Source: Phycisphaerales bacterium
Lineage (GTDB): Bacteria > Planctomycetota > Phycisphaerae > Phycisphaerales > UBA1924
Assembly (NCBI GenBank): GCA_029260345.1
Contig: JAJDDK010000006.1
Coordinates: 124,001 to 188,000 of the forward strand
Direction of reading: 5' to 3'
DNA length: 64,000 bases
Position numbers and translations under genes: made by a program. Shown in pieces: positions 49,964 through 56,249 of this stretch. Positions within the stretch are counted from its first letter, which is position 1. The number at the start of each line of letters is the position of its first letter. The notes under the pieces were generated by a model. That model did no database searches, was not told the DNA's origin, and was given only the letters and a program-made list of their open reading frames with translations.

Positions 49964-51481
49964 TCAGGATGGGACGTGCTGGTTTGGCGGTTCATCGGAT
50001 GCGTCTTCCGGGGAGTCTTCGCCGGCGCTGAGGCGCTGGAGCCCAAATTTCAGCAGCAGCGGGCCAATGAGTTCATGGATCCCAATGGCCGCGAGAACCA
50101 GCGAATACAGCGGATCGGCAAAAGGCTTTCCCGCGAATGTGGTTTGGACAATCGAGATGAGCGCAACGGAGACACCCGCCTGGGGGACGAACGCCGTCCA
50201 CAGCCACGTGCGAATTGGTGGTCCCTGTTTGACCAGACGACACGCGATATCCGTACTGACCCAGATCGCGGCGGCGCGAACTCCGACCAGTGCGAGGGCC
50301 GCGGGCCAGAGTGATGCGAGCGCGTTCAGGTCGAGTTTGGCGCCGGCGACGGCGAAGAAGACGCAATACACCGGAAGGCTGAGGTCTTCCATGGTGTGGA
50401 AGAACGGTCCGACGCGCTCGCGCCATACGTTGCGCATGAGCAGCCCGGCGACCAGCGCCACGATCAGAGCTTCGAGATGCAGAAGTTCACTGACGAGCGC
50501 AATGCTCATGCACCCGGCGACGACGAAGATTGCCAGATGCGCGCGCACCACGTGCATGTACCACGCGAATCCAAGTCCGAAGATCGCACCGGCCAGCACC
50601 GATCCGAGCAGATGGACACTCAGCGTTCCAACGACACCACTCGGCTTTGTCGCTTCGCCTTCGGCGGGCTCGGTTTGCTCAGTCAGCGCTGGTTCCGCCT
50701 CGTTACTTTCATCGGAATCCGCGACTTGTGCGGACGCGGCGGCCATGCCTTCGCCACTTGGGGCGTTCTGGCCTCCCAGCATTCCGTTCGCGACAGCGAT
50801 CACGACCGTGAACAGAACAATGAGCGCCAGGTCCTTTGAGATCATGACCGAGAGCGCGGCTTGGATTGAGTTTCCTTCCGCGCGAAGCTCGTTCATCACC
50901 GCAATAAACACGGCGGGCGATGCGGCCGTCGCAATCGTACCGGCGATGATCGCCGCGATAATGCGGGTTTCCGGCGCGTCGGCGAGACCGATGCTTGGCG
51001 CCAGCGCATACACGACGACCGTGACGCCGACCAGCACCGCAATGATTTGAATGATCGAAACGGACAAGATTAGCCGCATCGCTTTGCGCAAGAATGACAG
51101 TTCAATTTCGCCGCCTGCGGTCAGCGCAATGAGTGAGATGGCAAGGCTCTCAACCAGTTTCAGATGAATGATCTGGTCTTTGGGAACTACACCCAGCACT
51201 TGCGGCCCGATGATCATGCCGAAGATCAAGTAGCCGGAAAGCTTGGGTAATTGCAGCGTCTTGAAAATGCGACCAAAGAGCCATGAACCAAGCAGCAAGA
51301 GCCCGACGGAGAGTGTGGCGCCGGTCAGACTTTCGGGAAGCGTGGTGAAGGTGCGGTCCAGCGCGTCGCGCGCGGTGGACGCCGCGTCTGGAGCGCCTGT
51401 AGTGGGGCTCCAGCGCTGCACGAGCAGTGTGACCGCCAGCAGCACCAGCAATGCAAGGATGAGCCGCAAAATGCGAATCAT
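49964..51481 (-). CDS. CPA2-type cation/proton antiporter membrane protein
   Basis: A 505-residue protein with about 12 membrane helices and no RCK/TrkA tail. Features: LPKLSGYLIFGMIIGPQVLGVV (typical Kef/NhaP-like YLxxGxxxGP), SLALIALTAGGEIEL, an extended polar insertion rich in Glu/Ser (ADSDESNEAEPALTEQ) and an ending GIHELIGPLLLKFGLQRL. It overlaps the next antiporter gene by 4 bases. An Na+ or K+/H+ exchange role is inferred; ion unknown. Confidence 0.85.
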   Translation of the reverse strand: MIRILRLILALLVLLAVTLLVQRWSPTTGAPDAASTARDALDRTFTTLPESLTGATLSVGLLLLGSWLFGRIFKTLQLPKLSGYLIFGMIIGPQVLGVVPKDQIIHLKLVESLAISLIALTAGGEIELSFLRKAMRLILSVSIIQIIAVLVGVTVVVYALAPSIGLADAPETRIIAAIIAGTIATAASPAVFIAVMNELRAEGNSIQAALSVMISKDLALIVLFTVVIAVANGMLGGQNAPSGEGMAAASAQVADSDESNEAEPALTEQTEPAEGEATKPSGVVGTLSVHLLGSVLAGAIFGLGFAWYMHVVRAHLAIFVVAGCMSIALVSELLHLEALIVALVAGLLMRNVWRERVGPFFHTMEDLSLPVYCVFFAVAGAKLDLNALASLWPAALALVGVRAAAIWVSTDIACRLVKQGPPIRTWLWTAFVPQAGVSVALISIVQTTFAGKPFADPLYSLVLAAIGIHELIGPLLLKFGLQRLSAGEDSPEDASDEPPNQHVPS

Positions 51482-52725
51482 GCGGCGGGCTCCTCGGTCG
51501 GCGCTGCTGGCTGTTCAGCAGCGGTCGGTCGTTTGCGCAAGCCGCGGGCCGCGACGGCGATCACGTCGCACGTGATTCCGGTGAGCGCGACAATCGCGAG
51601 CAGGCGGTGATTCAGGTCGGACGGAATAGCGATCACCAGCGCCACACCGAGCATGATCGCCATGGGGCTTTGACGAATTGGCGTGAGATGCAAGAGCTGC
51701 TTTGCAGAAAATTCGCTTGAGTTGGAAACGCGGCTCATCGCAACAATGGTCGGCTTGCACACAACACGAAGCAGAATGATCGCCGCAGCAATGACCAGCG
51801 CAAGTGGTCCCAGCCGAATATCGAGAAGCACACCCGCGACAATCCAGTACAGCGTCGCGACTGCATGTTCAGCCTCAATGATGAACCGCTCAAACTTTCG
51901 CAATTCCTTGCCGGCAAGATTCGCGATCACAATGCCCGCAAGCATCGCTGACAGCAGCGGCGACATTTCCAGTTCGTTGGCGGCGCCGGTGATAATCGCG
52001 ACCACGCCGAGAAAAATCGCAAGCAATTCCGAGCGATTGCCTTGCGCCCGTCTCAGCCCGAAGCGGCTGATGATGCCAAGGACGATGGCGATCAAGATGA
52101 GCGCAACAAAGCGAAGCACCGGCGCCGTCGCGCTGAAGGTGAGCGATTCGATGTCGCGACCCCTCACCATCGCCAGTCCGAAGGAGAACACCAGCACGGC
52201 GACGGGTGTGGAGAGGCTCGCGGCGCCGCGCAGTGTGAGTGTCTCCGCTGAGTTTTGAGCATCGGCAAGGCGTAGCGAACGCGTCTCAGCGGTCCAGCCA
52301 ATGGCGCCCGCAGCGAGCAGCGCGACTGGAGCAATCATCGCAATCGCTGAATCATGCTGAAACCAGTACGGGAGCAGAAGGGCCGCAGCAAAACCGAAGA
52401 TCGCAATCGACGCCAGGGCGTCGATCAGCGAAAGGCGAATCATTGCGGATGGGAGCTGCTTGAGGATGTCGCGCCGAAGTTGCAGCCCGATCATGAGGCC
52501 GATCCAGCCGAGGCCGACCGTCAGCAGCGGGGAGGCATTGATCACGAGTTCGGGGCTCAGGATGCCGATGCCGCCCGGACCAATTGCAAGTCCGGCGAGC
52601 ACGCCAAGCCAGCCGCCACTGACCAGCACGCCGACCACAGTCGCGCGGCGCAACTTCAGAAACGTCGCACTGGTGGCGACGTAGGCGAGGGCGACCAGCA
52701 GCAGGATGCCGAAGATGATCTCCAT
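51478..52725 (-). CDS. CPA2-like cation/proton antiporter membrane protein
   Basis: A 415-residue protein from the ATG at 52725 (MEIIFGILLLVALAY); a TTG at 52743 is the alternative. About 12 membrane helices; conserved-looking patches include LKLRRATVVGVLVSGGWLGVLAGLAIGPGG, PLLTVGLGWIGLMIGLQLRRD and ELEMSPLLSAMLAGIVIANLAGKE. It has no C-terminal regulatory domain. It is paired by a 4-base overlap with the second antiporter, so the two may form a heteromer. Confidence 0.8.
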   Translation of the reverse strand: MEIIFGILLLVALAYVATSATFLKLRRATVVGVLVSGGWLGVLAGLAIGPGGIGILSPELVINASPLLTVGLGWIGLMIGLQLRRDILKQLPSAMIRLSLIDALASIAIFGFAAALLLPYWFQHDSAIAMIAPVALLAAGAIGWTAETRSLRLADAQNSAETLTLRGAASLSTPVAVLVFSFGLAMVRGRDIESLTFSATAPVLRFVALILIAIVLGIISRFGLRRAQGNRSELLAIFLGVVAIITGAANELEMSPLLSAMLAGIVIANLAGKELRKFERFIIEAEHAVATLYWIVAGVLLDIRLGPLALVIAAAIILLRVVCKPTIVAMSRVSNSSEFSAKQLLHLTPIRQSPMAIMLGVALVIAIPSDLNHRLLAIVALTGITCDVIAVAARGLRKRPTAAEQPAAPTEEPAA

Positions 52726-52769
52726 TGATCGCGCAGAGTCCAAAGTCGCGCCGATGAGGTCGGCTTGAG

Positions 52770-53144
52770 TTAGCGGCGAAGTCCGACGGTGCGGATGACT
52801 GGAAGAACCACGGCGATCGGGCGCGCTTCGGAACGCTCTTCGTTCTCAATGAACTCCGCCACGCTAGCGGCTTGTTCACTGGTAGCGATTGAAAACAACA
52901 TGCGGCTCCCGGTCGCGCTGGGGAGCAGCGCCACCAGCCCGGCAAAGATCGGCATCTCTTCGCGCAAGACCGCCGCCATGCCCTTGCTCTCAACCACCGT
53001 GGCGCCGGTGATGCCGATATCGAGCAGCGCCGTAAAGAGATCGTCCATCGCCGTGGGGTCAGACGCGATCACCACCAGGAGAACTCGGTCTTCGCCTGGC
53101 TGCTTTGGTTGTTCCGCGGGTCGCGTCTCGGGCGTTTCAGCCAT
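52770..53144 (-). CDS. PII-like regulatory protein
   Basis: A 124-residue protein from the ATG at 53144 (MAETPETRPAEQ), after a TTG alternative at 53162. The ferredoxin-like core resembles nitrogen-PII proteins: LLVVIASDPTAMDDLFTALLDIGITGATVVESKGMAAVLREEMPIFAGL. The PII T-loop Tyr and the B-loop nucleotide motif are not recognisable, so nitrogen signalling should not be assumed. It overlaps the PTS-IIA-like gene by 8 bases and precedes the antiporters. The pairing suggests allosteric control of transport. Confidence 0.7.
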   Translation of the reverse strand: MAETPETRPAEQPKQPGEDRVLLVVIASDPTAMDDLFTALLDIGITGATVVESKGMAAVLREEMPIFAGLVALLPSATGSRMLFSIATSEQAASVAEFIENEERSEARPIAVVLPVIRTVGLRR

Positions 53145-53601
53145 GGGCGCGATCCTCTTCAATCAATGCTTCGTACATGGCGGCCGCGTCGGGAGCGGTG
53201 CGGAGTCGTTCCAGCGCGCCAGGGCCTCGGGCGACGCGAGCCAGCCGCGCCAGCAACCGAACGTGCTCCCACGGCTTCGTCGCGGACCCAATCATGCAAA
53301 AGATGAGGTCCGGCGCAGGAAGGTCGCCACCGCCGAAACTGACGGCGGGTTTCAGGCGGGCCACCAGCAGGAGGGTCTCATCCACCTCGGGGAGCATGGC
53401 GTGCGGAAACGCGACGCCTTCCGGCGTGGCCGTCGGGGTTTGGGCTTCACGGGCGAGCAGGGCCTCAAGGAGCTCCACCTCGGTGTGCTCTGGCGCATGG
53501 CTGGCGGCGGCCGCCGCAAGGCGCTTCAGAACGTCATCCCGGTCGGCTGCTCCCTCGATCAGGATGGTCAAACTGGGTTTGAGAATCGGCTCGAGACGCA
53601 T
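53137..53601 (-). CDS. PTS EIIA-like domain protein
   Basis: A 154-residue protein from the ATG at 53601 (MRLEPILKPSLT), with GGGAG about 7 bases upstream. It matches the fructose/nitrogen-type EIIA fold: VLKRLAAAAASHAPE, LLEALLAREAQTPTATPEGVAFPHAMLPEVDE, then LLVARLKPAV, PAPDLIFCMIGSATKPWEHVRLLARLARV. The phospho-acceptor His is in GVAFPHAMLP. No PTS EI or HPr is in the window. First gene of the ten-gene run. Confidence 0.82.
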   Translation of the reverse strand: MRLEPILKPSLTILIEGAADRDDVLKRLAAAAASHAPEHTEVELLEALLAREAQTPTATPEGVAFPHAMLPEVDETLLLVARLKPAVSFGGGDLPAPDLIFCMIGSATKPWEHVRLLARLARVARGPGALERLRTAPDAAAMYEALIEEDRAHG

Positions 53602-53773
53602 GAGGTTTCTCCCGCAGGCGTAGGGGCGAAGATTGGCGATCACAGATTTGGCATCCGGCGCCAACGTCCGGGAGTCTGAAGCGCGGGGGCTACAATATCG
53701 GGGACTTCACGCAGGGTGAAATCGGAGGCGCCGAAGGCCAAACAATCTGGTTGACCATCTAGGGGATCAGCTC

Positions 53774-53989
53774 ATGTTCACTTTGGCAGAATCAGGCGAG
53801 ATGTTTTGGGCGATTGGCGGGGCCATCGCCATTGTGGCCATCTTGTCCGGAACGCTCTCATCAATCCTGAAAACGCGGTCTCGCGAGATGTCACGCCGCG
53901 AAATTGCCGCCTACATCGCCGAGGGGTCGATGACGCCGGAGCAGGGTGAGCGGCTGATGCGCGCCATGCCTGAAGGCGAGGACGACTAA
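53774..53989 (+). CDS. Small membrane protein with REIAAYIAEGS motif, copy 1
   Basis: A 71-residue protein: short lead, one membrane helix (WAIGGAIAIVAILSGTLSSIL), a basic juxtamembrane stretch and the shared motif SRREIAAYIAEGSMTPEQGERL at the C-terminus. The motif looks like the short amphipathic SHOCT type. TACAAT (53691-53696) lies 77 bases upstream as a possible -10 box. No function known. Confidence 0.75.
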   Translation: MFTLAESGEMFWAIGGAIAIVAILSGTLSSILKTRSREMSRREIAAYIAEGSMTPEQGERLMRAMPEGEDD

Positions 53990-54023
53990 AGCGCCGCTGG
54001 CGTCATCACAGGAGACCTTTGGA

Positions 54024-54242
54024 ATGCCGCAGATTTTTCAAGAAGAACCGTGGATGCTCGTGCCGCTCGTCGCGATGGTTGGCACGCTCGTCATCATCCT
54101 TTGCGGTTTGATCACGACAACAGTGCGCCGGGTTACTCAAACCAAGCAATTTGAACAATCACGGCGCGAGATCGCGGCGTACATCGCCGAGGGCTCCATG
54201 AGCCCCGAAGAAGGCGAACGACTGTTGAATACGAAGGCGTAA
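54024..54242 (+). CDS. Small membrane protein with REIAAYIAEGS motif, copy 2
   Basis: A 72-residue paralogue of the preceding gene, 34 bases downstream: one membrane helix (MLVPLVAMVGTLVIILCGLITTTV), a charged linker and QSRREIAAYIAEGSMSPEEGERLL. The identical core motif with a different membrane segment shows that the C-terminal module is the conserved part. Confidence 0.75.
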   Translation: MPQIFQEEPWMLVPLVAMVGTLVIILCGLITTTVRRVTQTKQFEQSRREIAAYIAEGSMSPEEGERLLNTKA

Positions 54243-54288
54243 GCACACTTTTGCATCGCACAATTGAAACGAGCGGAGCGGTACGATC

Positions 54289-54609
54289 ATGGATGCGATT
54301 TTAGAGACGATTGCAAACGAAGAAGCACTAATCTTGGCTCTCACATTGGGCCCACTAGTGCTGATCTCCGTGCTTGCGATTGTGCGCATGTGTTGCCGCA
54401 CCGCGATGGAGACGACGCGTCAGCGCGAAGAAACTCGGCGCGAGATCGCGGCGTACGTCGCCGAAGGCTCCATCACCAGTCAGGAAGCGGAGCGCATGCT
54501 CCAGCCGCGACCGTGGTATGCGGACACTTTTAATTTGAATTGTTTCACTGGCGGCAAAAACGGGGCTGCCGCACGACCGGCCAACGAGGCCTCAAGCCAG
54601 AACGTCTAA
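54289..54609 (+). CDS. Small membrane protein with REIAAYIAEGS motif, copy 3
   Basis: A 106-residue paralogue: membrane helix ALILALTLGPLVLISVLAIVRM, then CCRTAMETTRQREETRREIAAYVAEGSITSQEAERML and an added ~35-residue tail (WYADTFNLNCFTGGKNGAAARP). The tail distinguishes it from copies 1 and 2. The spacing suggests a single three-gene transcript. Confidence 0.72.
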   Translation: MDAILETIANEEALILALTLGPLVLISVLAIVRMCCRTAMETTRQREETRREIAAYVAEGSITSQEAERMLQPRPWYADTFNLNCFTGGKNGAAARPANEASSQNV

Positions 54610-54969
54610 CAGGTTGCCGGTGGCCTCGATCCAGTGAACCTCAGTCAAATTCACGACGCGCACGGCGGGCGTGGTGGGATAGTGCTTTGACGTCTGAGGG
54701 ATCAGCAGCTTCGCCGGCGCCTCTTCATCGACACCATCAATTTGAGATTCACACACGGCGGGCCGGTCCGCGACGTTATTGCAATTGAGGCGTTCTTCCT
54801 CATTTTGAGCCTTCAAATAGCACGCGAATGAGATGGGACCGTCGTTGGCGTCCCAGCAGTCCTCGGCCGCGCGGGCAGCAGGCTCCGGCGCGCGAGGCGG
54901 AGGGCCGGCTTTGTCCGGCTGCTGCGGCGGCGGCATATACGGAAACGGATTGGACGACTCGATTCGCAC
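54592..54969 (-). CDS. Hypothetical protein, uncertain
   Basis: A 125-residue frame from GTG at 54969, convergent with copy 3 and overlapping it by 18 bases. The composition is protein-like and acidic (DCWDANDGPISFACYLKAQNEEERLNCNNV), but there is no ribosome site, and another frame (55118 to about 54940) reads plausibly just upstream. The gene may be the 3' part of a frameshifted or misread longer gene. I do not recognise the family. Confidence 0.35.
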   Translation of the reverse strand: MRIESSNPFPYMPPPQQPDKAGPPPRAPEPAARAAEDCWDANDGPISFACYLKAQNEEERLNCNNVADRPAVCESQIDGVDEEAPAKLLIPQTSKHYPTTPAVRVVNLTEVHWIEATGNLLDVLA

Positions 54970-55139
54970 GCTTGAAGAGGTGCAATGGCGTCACCGGCGG
55001 CGCGCCAATCGAATTCGGCCAATAAGATCAGTGCATTCGGTCTGGAATCGTCGATTGGCGGCGCGAACTTCCGATAGGTCGAATCACGGTTGCGCCAGAC
55101 GTTGCGTTTGGTCATCATGCGGTGTTGTGTGCAGGCATC

Positions 55140-56249
55140 ATGCTGAGAACGGATTCACTTGAGTACGAGCTTCCCGAGGAGCTGATCGCGACGCACGCCG
55201 TCGAGCCGCGCGACAGCGCTCGGTTGCTGGTGGTCTCGCGCTCCAACGCCAGCGTGATGGAGCATGGCGCCGTTCGGGATTTGCCACGCTTTCTGCGGCC
55301 AGGCGACATCGCCGTGTTCAATCGATCGAAAGTGCTCCGGGCGCGAATCAGAGGAGTTCGCAAAGACACCGGAGGCGCCGTCGAGGGTTTGTTTCTGGAG
55401 CATTGCGAATCAGCGCGGGGCGCCTGGCGGATGCTTCTTCGCAGCAATGGCCGATTGCGCGAGGGATTTGTGATCCGATTGTCGGATGCTGAGGGAAAAG
55501 CAACGGACCAATCATTGCGGCTGATTCGCAAGGACGATGACGCCTGGATTGTTGAACCGGAGCCACGTGTCGAGAATCCGGCGAAAGCGCTTGAGCGCGT
55601 TGGGTTCACGCCGCTGCCACCGTACATCCTTCACGCCCGGAAGATCCACGGTGAGAACGTTTCTGATGCGCAGGATCGCGTGCAATATCAGACCGTGTAC
55701 GCCGCGGAATCGGACAGCGCGATGGGGGATGGCTCTGTCGCGGCGCCGACGGCGGGCCTGCACTTCACCGATCGCCTCTTGAGCGAGATGGCGGATCGCG
55801 GCGTACGTGAGGCATTTGTCGAATTGCAGGTGGGCGCCGGCACATTCAAGCCGGTCCAGACGGAGACCGTTGAAGCTCATCCGATGCATCGCGAACGATG
55901 TGCGGCCCCGCCAGAAATCGTGTCCACGCTGCAGAACAGGGGCGAGGGGCGTTTGTTCGCCGTAGGAACGACCTCCGCACGCACGCTGGAGAGCATCCCG
56001 GAGCCGCTGTCGCAGTGGGAGAGCGCTGGCTGGACCGGATCAACACAATTGCTGATCACACCCGGCTACTCGTGGCGATTTGTCGATGGAATGGTGACGA
56101 ACTTTCACCTGCCGCGTTCGACGCTGCTGGCGATGGTCGGCGCGCTGTTTCCCGATGGCGTGGAACGCTTGCTGGAGATCTATCGCATCGCGATCGCGGA
56201 GCGATATCGGTTCTACAGCTACGGGGATGCGATGCTCATCCTGCCGTGA
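55140..56249 (+). CDS. queA: S-adenosylmethionine:tRNA ribosyltransferase-isomerase
   Basis: QueA transfers and isomerises the ribose of SAM to preQ1 in tRNA, forming epoxyqueuosine. I start at the ATG at 55140 (MLRTDSLEYELPEELIA), 369 residues. Conserved: YELPEELIATHAVEPRDSARLLVV, GDIAVFNRSKVLRARI, PLPPYI, VQYQTVYAAESDSAMGDGSVAAPTAGLHFTDRLL, VELQVGAGTFKPVQTETVEAHPMHRE, VGTTSARTLE and MVTNFHLPRSTLLAMVGALF. The gene is isolated from other queuosine genes in the window. Confidence 0.95.
   Translation: MLRTDSLEYELPEELIATHAVEPRDSARLLVVSRSNASVMEHGAVRDLPRFLRPGDIAVFNRSKVLRARIRGVRKDTGGAVEGLFLEHCESARGAWRMLLRSNGRLREGFVIRLSDAEGKATDQSLRLIRKDDDAWIVEPEPRVENPAKALERVGFTPLPPYILHARKIHGENVSDAQDRVQYQTVYAAESDSAMGDGSVAAPTAGLHFTDRLLSEMADRGVREAFVELQVGAGTFKPVQTETVEAHPMHRERCAAPPEIVSTLQNRGEGRLFAVGTTSARTLESIPEPLSQWESAGWTGSTQLLITPGYSWRFVDGMVTNFHLPRSTLLAMVGALFPDGVERLLEIYRIAIAERYRFYSYGDAMLILP

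What the first reader, a model, noticed from the sequence alone, without database searches (positions are those of the whole stretch)
53774..54609. Three tandem small membrane proteins with a shared REIAAYxAEGSxxxxEaeRxL tail
The copies have unrelated membrane helices but nearly identical C-terminal motifs, resembling a SHOCT-like oligomerisation motif. The third has an extra tail. They are divergent from the antiporter run and may be its membrane partners or form a heteromer. I know of no described function.
Basis: partly seen in the sequence, partly recalled or inferred. Interest (0 to 1): 0.65.

Follow-up and report, generated by a model that had tools for sequence, protein, structure and literature searches.

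The report
Ordered arrays of tiny membrane-anchored hairpin proteins
A set of three tiny membrane proteins sitting side by side belongs to an old, ordered gene family, found so far essentially in one order of planctomycete bacteria, in which each protein carries nearly the same cytoplasmic helical hairpin on a different membrane anchor; it probably builds a membrane scaffold, but its job is unknown.

Summary
Three tandem genes (53774-53989, 54024-54242, 54289-54609, +) encode 71, 72 and 106 aa proteins, each with one membrane helix followed by RE.[ST]RREIAAYxAEGS. The genome has no other strong copy. In 80 related contigs plus the window, 198 copies form 81 same-strand arrays; 67 of 81 hold 2-4 copies.

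The tail is a divergent SHOCT-like hairpin of the DUF2089-C kind (profile-profile probability 97%; 40 column-shuffled controls reach at most 44%), not classical SHOCT. Structure prediction runs the membrane helix unbroken into the hairpin's first helix. The helices are not unrelated: they share a small-residue tendency. The first gene is an ancient class (one branch holds 61 of 65 firsts and 1 of 107 others), so the array is an ordered, retained set.

Antiporter partnership is not supported: antiporters flank 6 of 80 related arrays, guaB 34 of 80, neither universal. PspA is in 5 of 163 family genomes.

Most likely: a hetero-oligomeric inner-membrane scaffold presenting a common docking hairpin. 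Identity and order are shown; assembly, partner and role are inferred. New variant of a known kind.

The parts
53774..53989 (+). Protein 1 (71 aa): acidic N-end, membrane helix about residues 14-32, SHOCT-like hairpin RREIAAYIAEGSMTPEQGERLM. First gene of the array, with the motif signature typical of first genes.
54024..54242 (+). Protein 2 (72 aa): same layout, motif RREIAAYIAEGSMSPEEGERLL. AlphaFold2 model: helix 9-56 continuous from membrane into the first hairpin helix, turn, helix 61-69.
54289..54609 (+). Protein 3 (106 aa): same layout, motif RREIAAYVAEGSITSQEAERML, then 35 residues beginning QPRPWY; third members in L033 and L089 have SPSPWY / SPSPWW.
53882..53959 (+). SHOCT-like hairpin of protein 1 with its lead (REMSRREIAAYIAEGSMTPEQGERLM)
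   Evidence: coordinates from the sequence
54150..54227 (+). SHOCT-like hairpin of protein 2 with its lead (FEQSRREIAAYIAEGSMSPEEGERLL)
   Evidence: coordinates from the sequence
54424..54501 (+). SHOCT-like hairpin of protein 3 with its lead (REETRREIAAYVAEGSITSQEAERML)
   Evidence: coordinates from the sequence
49964..53664 (-). Divergent neighbours, not part of the array: two PF00999 exchangers (49964-51481, 51478-52743), a weak P-II-like protein (52770-53162) and a PTS EIIA type 2 domain (53137-53664). Adjacent in a minority of related loci only.

Best explanation
The array encodes a lineage-specific family of single-pass inner-membrane microproteins. Each has a short acidic N-end outside, one membrane helix, and a basic stalk running straight into a cytoplasmic SHOCT-like (DUF2089-C type) helical hairpin. 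SHOWN: tandem, same-strand, closely spaced genes kept under purifying selection in many members of an order; a distinct ancient first-gene class; the hairpin's relationship to SHOCT-like domains; a predicted fold and a charge pattern that gives the topology; no fixed neighbour gene. INFERRED: the helices pack side by side through their shared small-residue face, so that two to four non-identical subunits form a hetero-oligomer. The nearly identical hairpins then present one common docking surface, to each other or to a conserved cytoplasmic or membrane partner. The divergent N-ends, helices and tails give each subunit its place. The likely role is a membrane scaffold or localisation platform for envelope upkeep, independent of the antiporters and of PspA.
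For: 198 copies in 81 loci, all on one strand; 14 loci with 1 copy, 27 with 2, 30 with 3, 10 with 4; neighbouring matches start at most 395 bases apart. 99 of 107 intergenic gaps are under 100 bases, median 26. 138 of 163 same-family genomes match the motif; 178 of 400 genomes of the order match the full profile. First against other position: 6 changes on the tree against at least 42 in 50 within-locus shuffles; 8 against at least 44 on helix-plus-linker columns alone; one branch holds 61 of 65 firsts, 1 of 107 others and 12 of 16 singles. The motif profile matches SHOCT-like at 97.1%. Of the 7 best places of Pfam's SHOCT-like model in 21 relatives, 5 fall on places that one search finds with the array motif profile. 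Model of protein 2: pLDDT 93.4, one continuous helix into the hairpin. A two-hairpin member is modelled with two hairpins, and its second hairpin reaches Pfam's cut-off of 27 bits exactly. Small residues recur near -26/-25, -22, -19 and -15 in both classes. More K/R after than before the helix in 188 of 188. dN/dS 0.03-0.33 in 23 of 28 comparisons.
Against: No interaction data and no multimer prediction. The published test of one classical SHOCT domain did not support self-oligomerisation (PMC3581485). 14 of 81 loci hold a single copy, so a heteromer is not always needed. Among family genomes at least 90% complete and at most 5% contaminated, 12 of 112 have no motif match, and 222 of 400 order genomes have no profile match, so it is not universal. 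The small-residue pattern is a tendency (34-81% small at -26, -22, -19, -15), common in membrane helices. Window proteins score far below the Pfam cut-off. Four firsts lie outside the first-gene branch, one third gene lies inside it, and that branch was picked as the best of all. In the 28 comparisons the window-L033 pairs give 0.42, 0.37 and one saturated value, and two are mismatched paralogues at 0.62 and 0.71.
Confidence: 0.55

Rival explanations
1. Independent membrane anchors: each protein works alone as a monomer or homo-oligomer, and the tandem set is a specialisation series of one anchor that binds different clients through its tail.
For: 14 of 81 loci have a single copy, and 12 of the 16 single rows are of the first class. 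C-terminal tails vary: Cys in 82 of 188, Pro-Trp motifs in 15 of 188.
Against: Fixed place of the first class in most arrays and tight operon-like spacing suggest joint function.
Confidence: 0.27
2. PspB-like or PSP-system component: a membrane-stress sensor working with PspA.
For: SHOCT-like domains are linked to PSP contexts (PMC11237479, passages read); same layout of short membrane protein with a cytoplasmic helix; some tails read D.P.WE, which recalls the PspB C-end (recalled, not tested).
Against: PspA is found in 5 of 163 family genomes and not in the window's own genome. No PspB match for the 13 array proteins scanned singly; the 41-member scan listed only 25 of 56 families, none of them PspB.
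Confidence: 0.08
3. Antiporter accessory subunits: the three proteins are small membrane partners of the divergently encoded PF00999 exchangers.
For: Adjacent and divergent in the window; genes of the exchanger-EIIA block are near the array in 9 of 80 relatives.
Against: Antiporter 1 near 5 of 80 and antiporter 2 near 6 of 80 related arrays; of 70 loci with at least 4 kb upstream only 7 carry any gene of the block. guaB lies near 34 of 80 instead. Opposite strands.
Confidence: 0.06
4. Small hydrophobic toxins or holin-like lysis peptides.
For: Size and one membrane helix; PHROG holin match E=0.056 for protein 2.
Against: Broad presence in the family and order, conserved cytoplasmic domain and dN/dS well below 1; the match is not significant.
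Confidence: 0.03

Closest known systems
SHOCT-like domain, DUF2089 C-terminal (Pfam PF22746)
   Same: Gapless 24-column profile match at 97.1%, sharing the R..I......EG.[IM][ST].E...[AG].[RK]L[LM] pattern by eye; predicted two-helix hairpin.
   Different: Window proteins score 12-14 bits or nothing against a cut-off of 27. AAY.A stands where the SHOCT-like segments mostly have L.[ML][LV]. The hairpin sits on a dedicated one-helix microprotein in an ordered array.
Classical SHOCT domain (Pfam PF09851; PMC3581485)
   Same: Short, mostly C-terminal two-helix domain with a conserved glycine (passages read).
   Different: No profile match (probability 0.8%).
PSP-linked SHOCT-like proteins (PMC11237479)
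   Same: Proposed there to anchor or assemble proteins at the inner face of the membrane (passages read).
   Different: No PSP component showed up among the neighbour clusters I had annotated by Pfam (14 representatives), and PspA is in only 5 of 163 genomes. PspC, Toastrack and Lia genes were not searched for genome-wide.
PspB (layout recalled)
   Same: About 75 aa, N-terminal membrane helix, cytoplasmic helical end.
   Different: No Pfam match listed.

Membership tests
SHOCT-like DUF2089-C (PF22746) | Score at or above Pfam cut-off (27 bits) | tested here: not met
   Proteins 1 and 2: 12.3 and 13.6 bits; protein 3: no match. One relative reaches exactly 27.0, by its second hairpin.
SHOCT-like DUF2089-C (PF22746) | Profile-level homology | tested here: met
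   hhalign probability 97.1%, score 43.5, against at most 43.6% and 19.0 in 40 column-shuffled controls; 28 of 41 members touch the model at E<=1. The SHOCT-like profile was built from 14 planctomycete segments, not from Pfam's own alignment.
SHOCT-like DUF2089-C (PF22746) | Two-helix hairpin | tested here: met
   Predicted models: helix, 4-residue turn, helix. Prediction only.
SHOCT (PF09851) | Profile-level homology | tested here: not met
   Probability 0.8% against 11 planctomycete SHOCT segments.
SHOCT-like as oligomerisation domain | Self-association | not testable with these tools
   Published test of one classical SHOCT domain negative (PMC3581485, passages read).
PspB | Match to the Pfam family | tested here: not met
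   Not listed for 13 array proteins scanned singly nor among the 25 of 56 families shown for 41 members.
Mrp-type antiporter subunits | Encoded with an Mrp operon | tested here: not met
   Neighbours match PF00999, and their homologues flank 6 of 80 related arrays.

The most novel reading that the evidence does not exclude
An order-specific hetero-oligomeric membrane machine made wholly of SHOCT-like microproteins with a fixed subunit order. It would act as a core envelope scaffold in Phycisphaerales-type planctomycetes that mostly lack PspA, with C-terminal tails (Cys-rich or Pro-Trp) recruiting clients.
Probability: 0.2. Interest if true: 0.7.

Novelty: new variant of a known kind. Interest (0 to 1): 0.42.

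Why it matters
SHOCT and SHOCT-like domains are widespread, and the papers I saw leave their function open. Here the domain stands almost alone on a minimal membrane anchor, in two to four non-identical copies in 67 of 81 loci, with an ancient first-gene class. That makes it a clean natural system in which to ask what a SHOCT-like hairpin binds and whether such proteins assemble.

Tried and rejected
Antiporter partnership: tested by tblastn of the window's neighbours against the 80 loci; rejected as general. PSP link: PspA searched in 163 genomes; rejected as general. Solved structures by profile (best E 0.33) and by fold (no match at E<=0.001): uninformative. Rfam over 53000-56000 and sigma-70 promoter and terminator scans over 53600-55200: nothing found. 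NCBIfam and PHROGs: nothing significant. The first neighbour clustering was muddled by antisense ORFs and was replaced; the gene caller is a crude composition score of my own. My first pattern missed copies (188); a profile search found 198. The counts rest on the 188; one spurious pattern hit in L052 was dropped before all of these except the 129-pair mean, where it was also skipped. Of the papers listed, only two were opened (passages); the others looked unrelated from title and abstract start. Phylogenetic profiling for partners was not attempted.

Full report
OBSERVATION. Each has one strongly hydrophobic stretch near the N-end. The motif copies are 64-86% identical to one another, while the 30 residues before them are at most 10% identical without gaps; over 129 within-locus pairs in the family the means are 75% and 16%. 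In the whole genome (3.4 Mb, 8 contigs) the motif query finds only these three places. With a 20-sequence motif profile, 19 of 26 genomes give 44 places at E 1.4e-12 or better, then there is a gap to 0.0024 and weaker hits. The 0.0024 hit falls on the SHOCT-like protein that Pfam's own model finds in the same genome (G270). So the motif is not scattered among unrelated proteins in those genomes.

EXTENT OF THE FAMILY. The 24-residue motif matches in 138 of 163 genomes of the same family; among the 112 good-quality ones, in 100. In the order, 178 of 400 genomes match the full-length profile at E<=1e-5. In a 392-genome sample of the phylum, 18 match at E<=1e-3: 14 of these belong to the order (the window's own genome included), and 4 lie elsewhere at a marginal 5e-4 to 1e-3. 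In most genomes of those two profile searches only 13 candidates were scored, so absence is less certain than presence. A scan of the species-level genome collection found 127 relatives and kept the best 80 loci. Their titles name Planctomycetota, Phycisphaerae, Phycisphaerales, Phycisphaeraceae or Phycisphaera, except L091 (bacterium) and L058 (Cyanobacteria). L058's array and neighbours resemble L062 (Phycisphaerales), so I take its label to be wrong. That scan starts from short peptides of the query, so distant relatives could be missed.

ARRAYS. A profile search of the 80 loci plus the window finds 198 copies, all on the same strand: 14 loci with one copy, 27 with two, 30 with three and 10 with four. 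Neighbouring matches start at most 395 bases apart. Among the 188 copies found first by pattern, 99 of 107 neighbour gaps are under 100 bases, median 26, as in an operon. Nearest-relative comparisons give dN/dS of 0.03-0.33 in 23 of 28. The other five are two mismatched paralogues (0.62, 0.71) and the three window-L033 pairs (0.42, 0.37, one saturated). I chose the nine locus pairs by eye as near relatives.

ORDERED CLASSES. On a quick maximum-likelihood tree of 188 copies (63 columns), the label first/other, set for the 172 copies of the 65 multi-copy loci, needs 6 changes, against a minimum of 42 in 50 shuffles within loci. On a tree of the 38 helix-and-linker columns alone it needs 8, against 44. 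With three labels (first, middle, last) it needs 30, against 69. The best single branch holds 61 of 65 firsts, 1 of 107 others and 12 of 16 singles, with support 97. That branch was picked as the best of all branches; four firsts fall outside it (L038, L054, L056, L071), and a third gene of L040 falls inside. In the motif, firsts read I at position 8 in 64 of 65 and QGE in 61 of 65; lasts read V in 43 of 65 and QGE in 11 of 65. Thus the first gene is an old class mostly kept at the head of the array. The motif's near identity is better explained by selection on the protein than by recent copying, with the reservation that copies 2 and 3 of the window share a 21-base identical run and most of their codons.

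WHAT THE TAIL IS. Pfam gives only sub-threshold hits to SHOCT-like_DUF2089-C for proteins 1 and 2 and none for protein 3. Across 41 diverse members 28 touch that model, best E 3.1e-6; that best hit is the second hairpin of a two-hairpin member and equals the cut-off of 27 bits. When Pfam's SHOCT-like model is run over 21 relatives at E<=0.01, 5 of its 7 places coincide with array-motif places, all five below the cut-off. I collected 14 SHOCT-like and 11 classical SHOCT segments from planctomycete genomes and compared profiles. Family against SHOCT-like gives probability 97.1%, score 43.5, 24 columns without a gap; 40 column-shuffled controls reach at most 43.6% and score 19.0. Family against classical SHOCT gives 0.8%. 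The domain is therefore a divergent SHOCT-like hairpin.

ANATOMY. The model of protein 2 (pLDDT 93.4) is one helix from residue 9 to 56, spanning membrane and stalk and including RREIAAYIA, then a turn, then helix 61-69. A two-hairpin relative (pLDDT 88.9) is modelled with helices 11-66, 71-82, 86-95 and 101-112. In all 188 copies there are more K/R in the 15 residues after the membrane helix than in those before it; mean net charge is +2.36 against -1.98. By the positive-inside rule (recalled) this puts the hairpin in the cytoplasm. Both classes prefer small residues (Gly, Ala, Ser) near -26/-25, -22, -19 and -15 before the motif, a 4-3-4 spacing that would suit close helix packing; this is a tendency, not an invariant. 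Beyond the motif the tails are mostly short and varied: Cys occurs in 82 of 188 tails and makes up 4.2% of tail residues against 0.6% elsewhere; 15 of 188 have a Pro-Trp motif. Protein 3's 35-residue end begins QPRPWY and resembles SPSPWY and SPSPWW in third members of L033 and L089; the rest of it looks unconserved by eye.

NEIGHBOURS. The window's antiporter genes match PF00999, next to an EIIA domain and a weak P-II-like protein. tblastn against the 80 loci finds antiporter 1 in 5, antiporter 2 in 6, any gene of that block in 9, queA in 12, guaB (IMP dehydrogenase, named by Pfam) in 34 and a glycogen debranching enzyme in 31. No neighbour is constant, within flanks of up to 8 kb that some contigs cut short. 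In 8 loci a minus-strand debranching enzyme gene lies between array and guaB, so guaB is unlikely to be a co-transcribed partner there. The array therefore looks self-contained. PspA, the usual PSP partner, is in 5 of 163 family genomes.

MECHANISM. I favour a hetero-oligomeric inner-membrane scaffold with a common cytoplasmic docking hairpin. The shown steps are anatomy (partly by prediction), order, selection and domain identity. The inferred steps are helix packing, heteromer formation, a shared partner, and a role in envelope upkeep. The literature suggests membrane anchoring and complex assembly for SHOCT-like domains (PMC11237479, passages read), while one classical SHOCT domain failed an oligomerisation test (PMC3581485, passages read). 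This favours docking to another partner over self-association of the hairpin itself; assembly, if any, may lie in the membrane helices.

NOVELTY. The domain kind is known; the one-helix microprotein arrays appear undescribed as far as four searches of open-licence papers can tell: SHOCT with membrane, oligomerization and domain, Phycisphaerales with small membrane proteins (no paper), SHOCT with planctomycetes (one paper, the SHOCT paper itself), DUF2089 or SHOCT-like.

Noticed in passing
window 49964-53664 (-): Two PF00999 exchangers are encoded with a PTS EIIA type 2 domain and a weak P-II-like protein (PF00543, E=0.0042, below cut-off): possibly a nitrogen- or phosphotransfer-regulated antiporter set; near the array in a minority of relatives.
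   Followed up: partly
window 54592-54969 (-): A 125-aa ORF overlaps the end of protein 3; no Pfam match and no relative in the 80 loci, so it may not be a gene.
   Followed up: partly
L036:6781-7131, L100:8608-8955; perhaps L107:8509-8925: Some last members carry an extra SHOCT-like hairpin; in L036 and L100 Pfam's SHOCT-like match lies on the extra one (27.0 and 21.9 bits). In L107 the extra hairpin is my reading by eye only.
   Followed up: partly
C-terminal tails across the arrays (e.g. L054, L091, L044): Cys is enriched about sevenfold in the short tails (82 of 188 have one), some as CxxC-like ends: possible metal or thiol chemistry.
   Followed up: no
L058: Record titled Cyanobacteria carries an array and neighbours very like L062 (Phycisphaerales): probably a mislabelled metagenome assembly.
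   Followed up: no
upstream of the array in L039, L045, L054, L055, L076, L091, L092 (one cluster) and L048, L054, L091, L099, L110 (another): Same-strand proteins of about 276 and 299 aa (median) lie just upstream in 7 and 5 loci; the one representative of each that I scanned has no Pfam match at E<=0.001.
   Followed up: no
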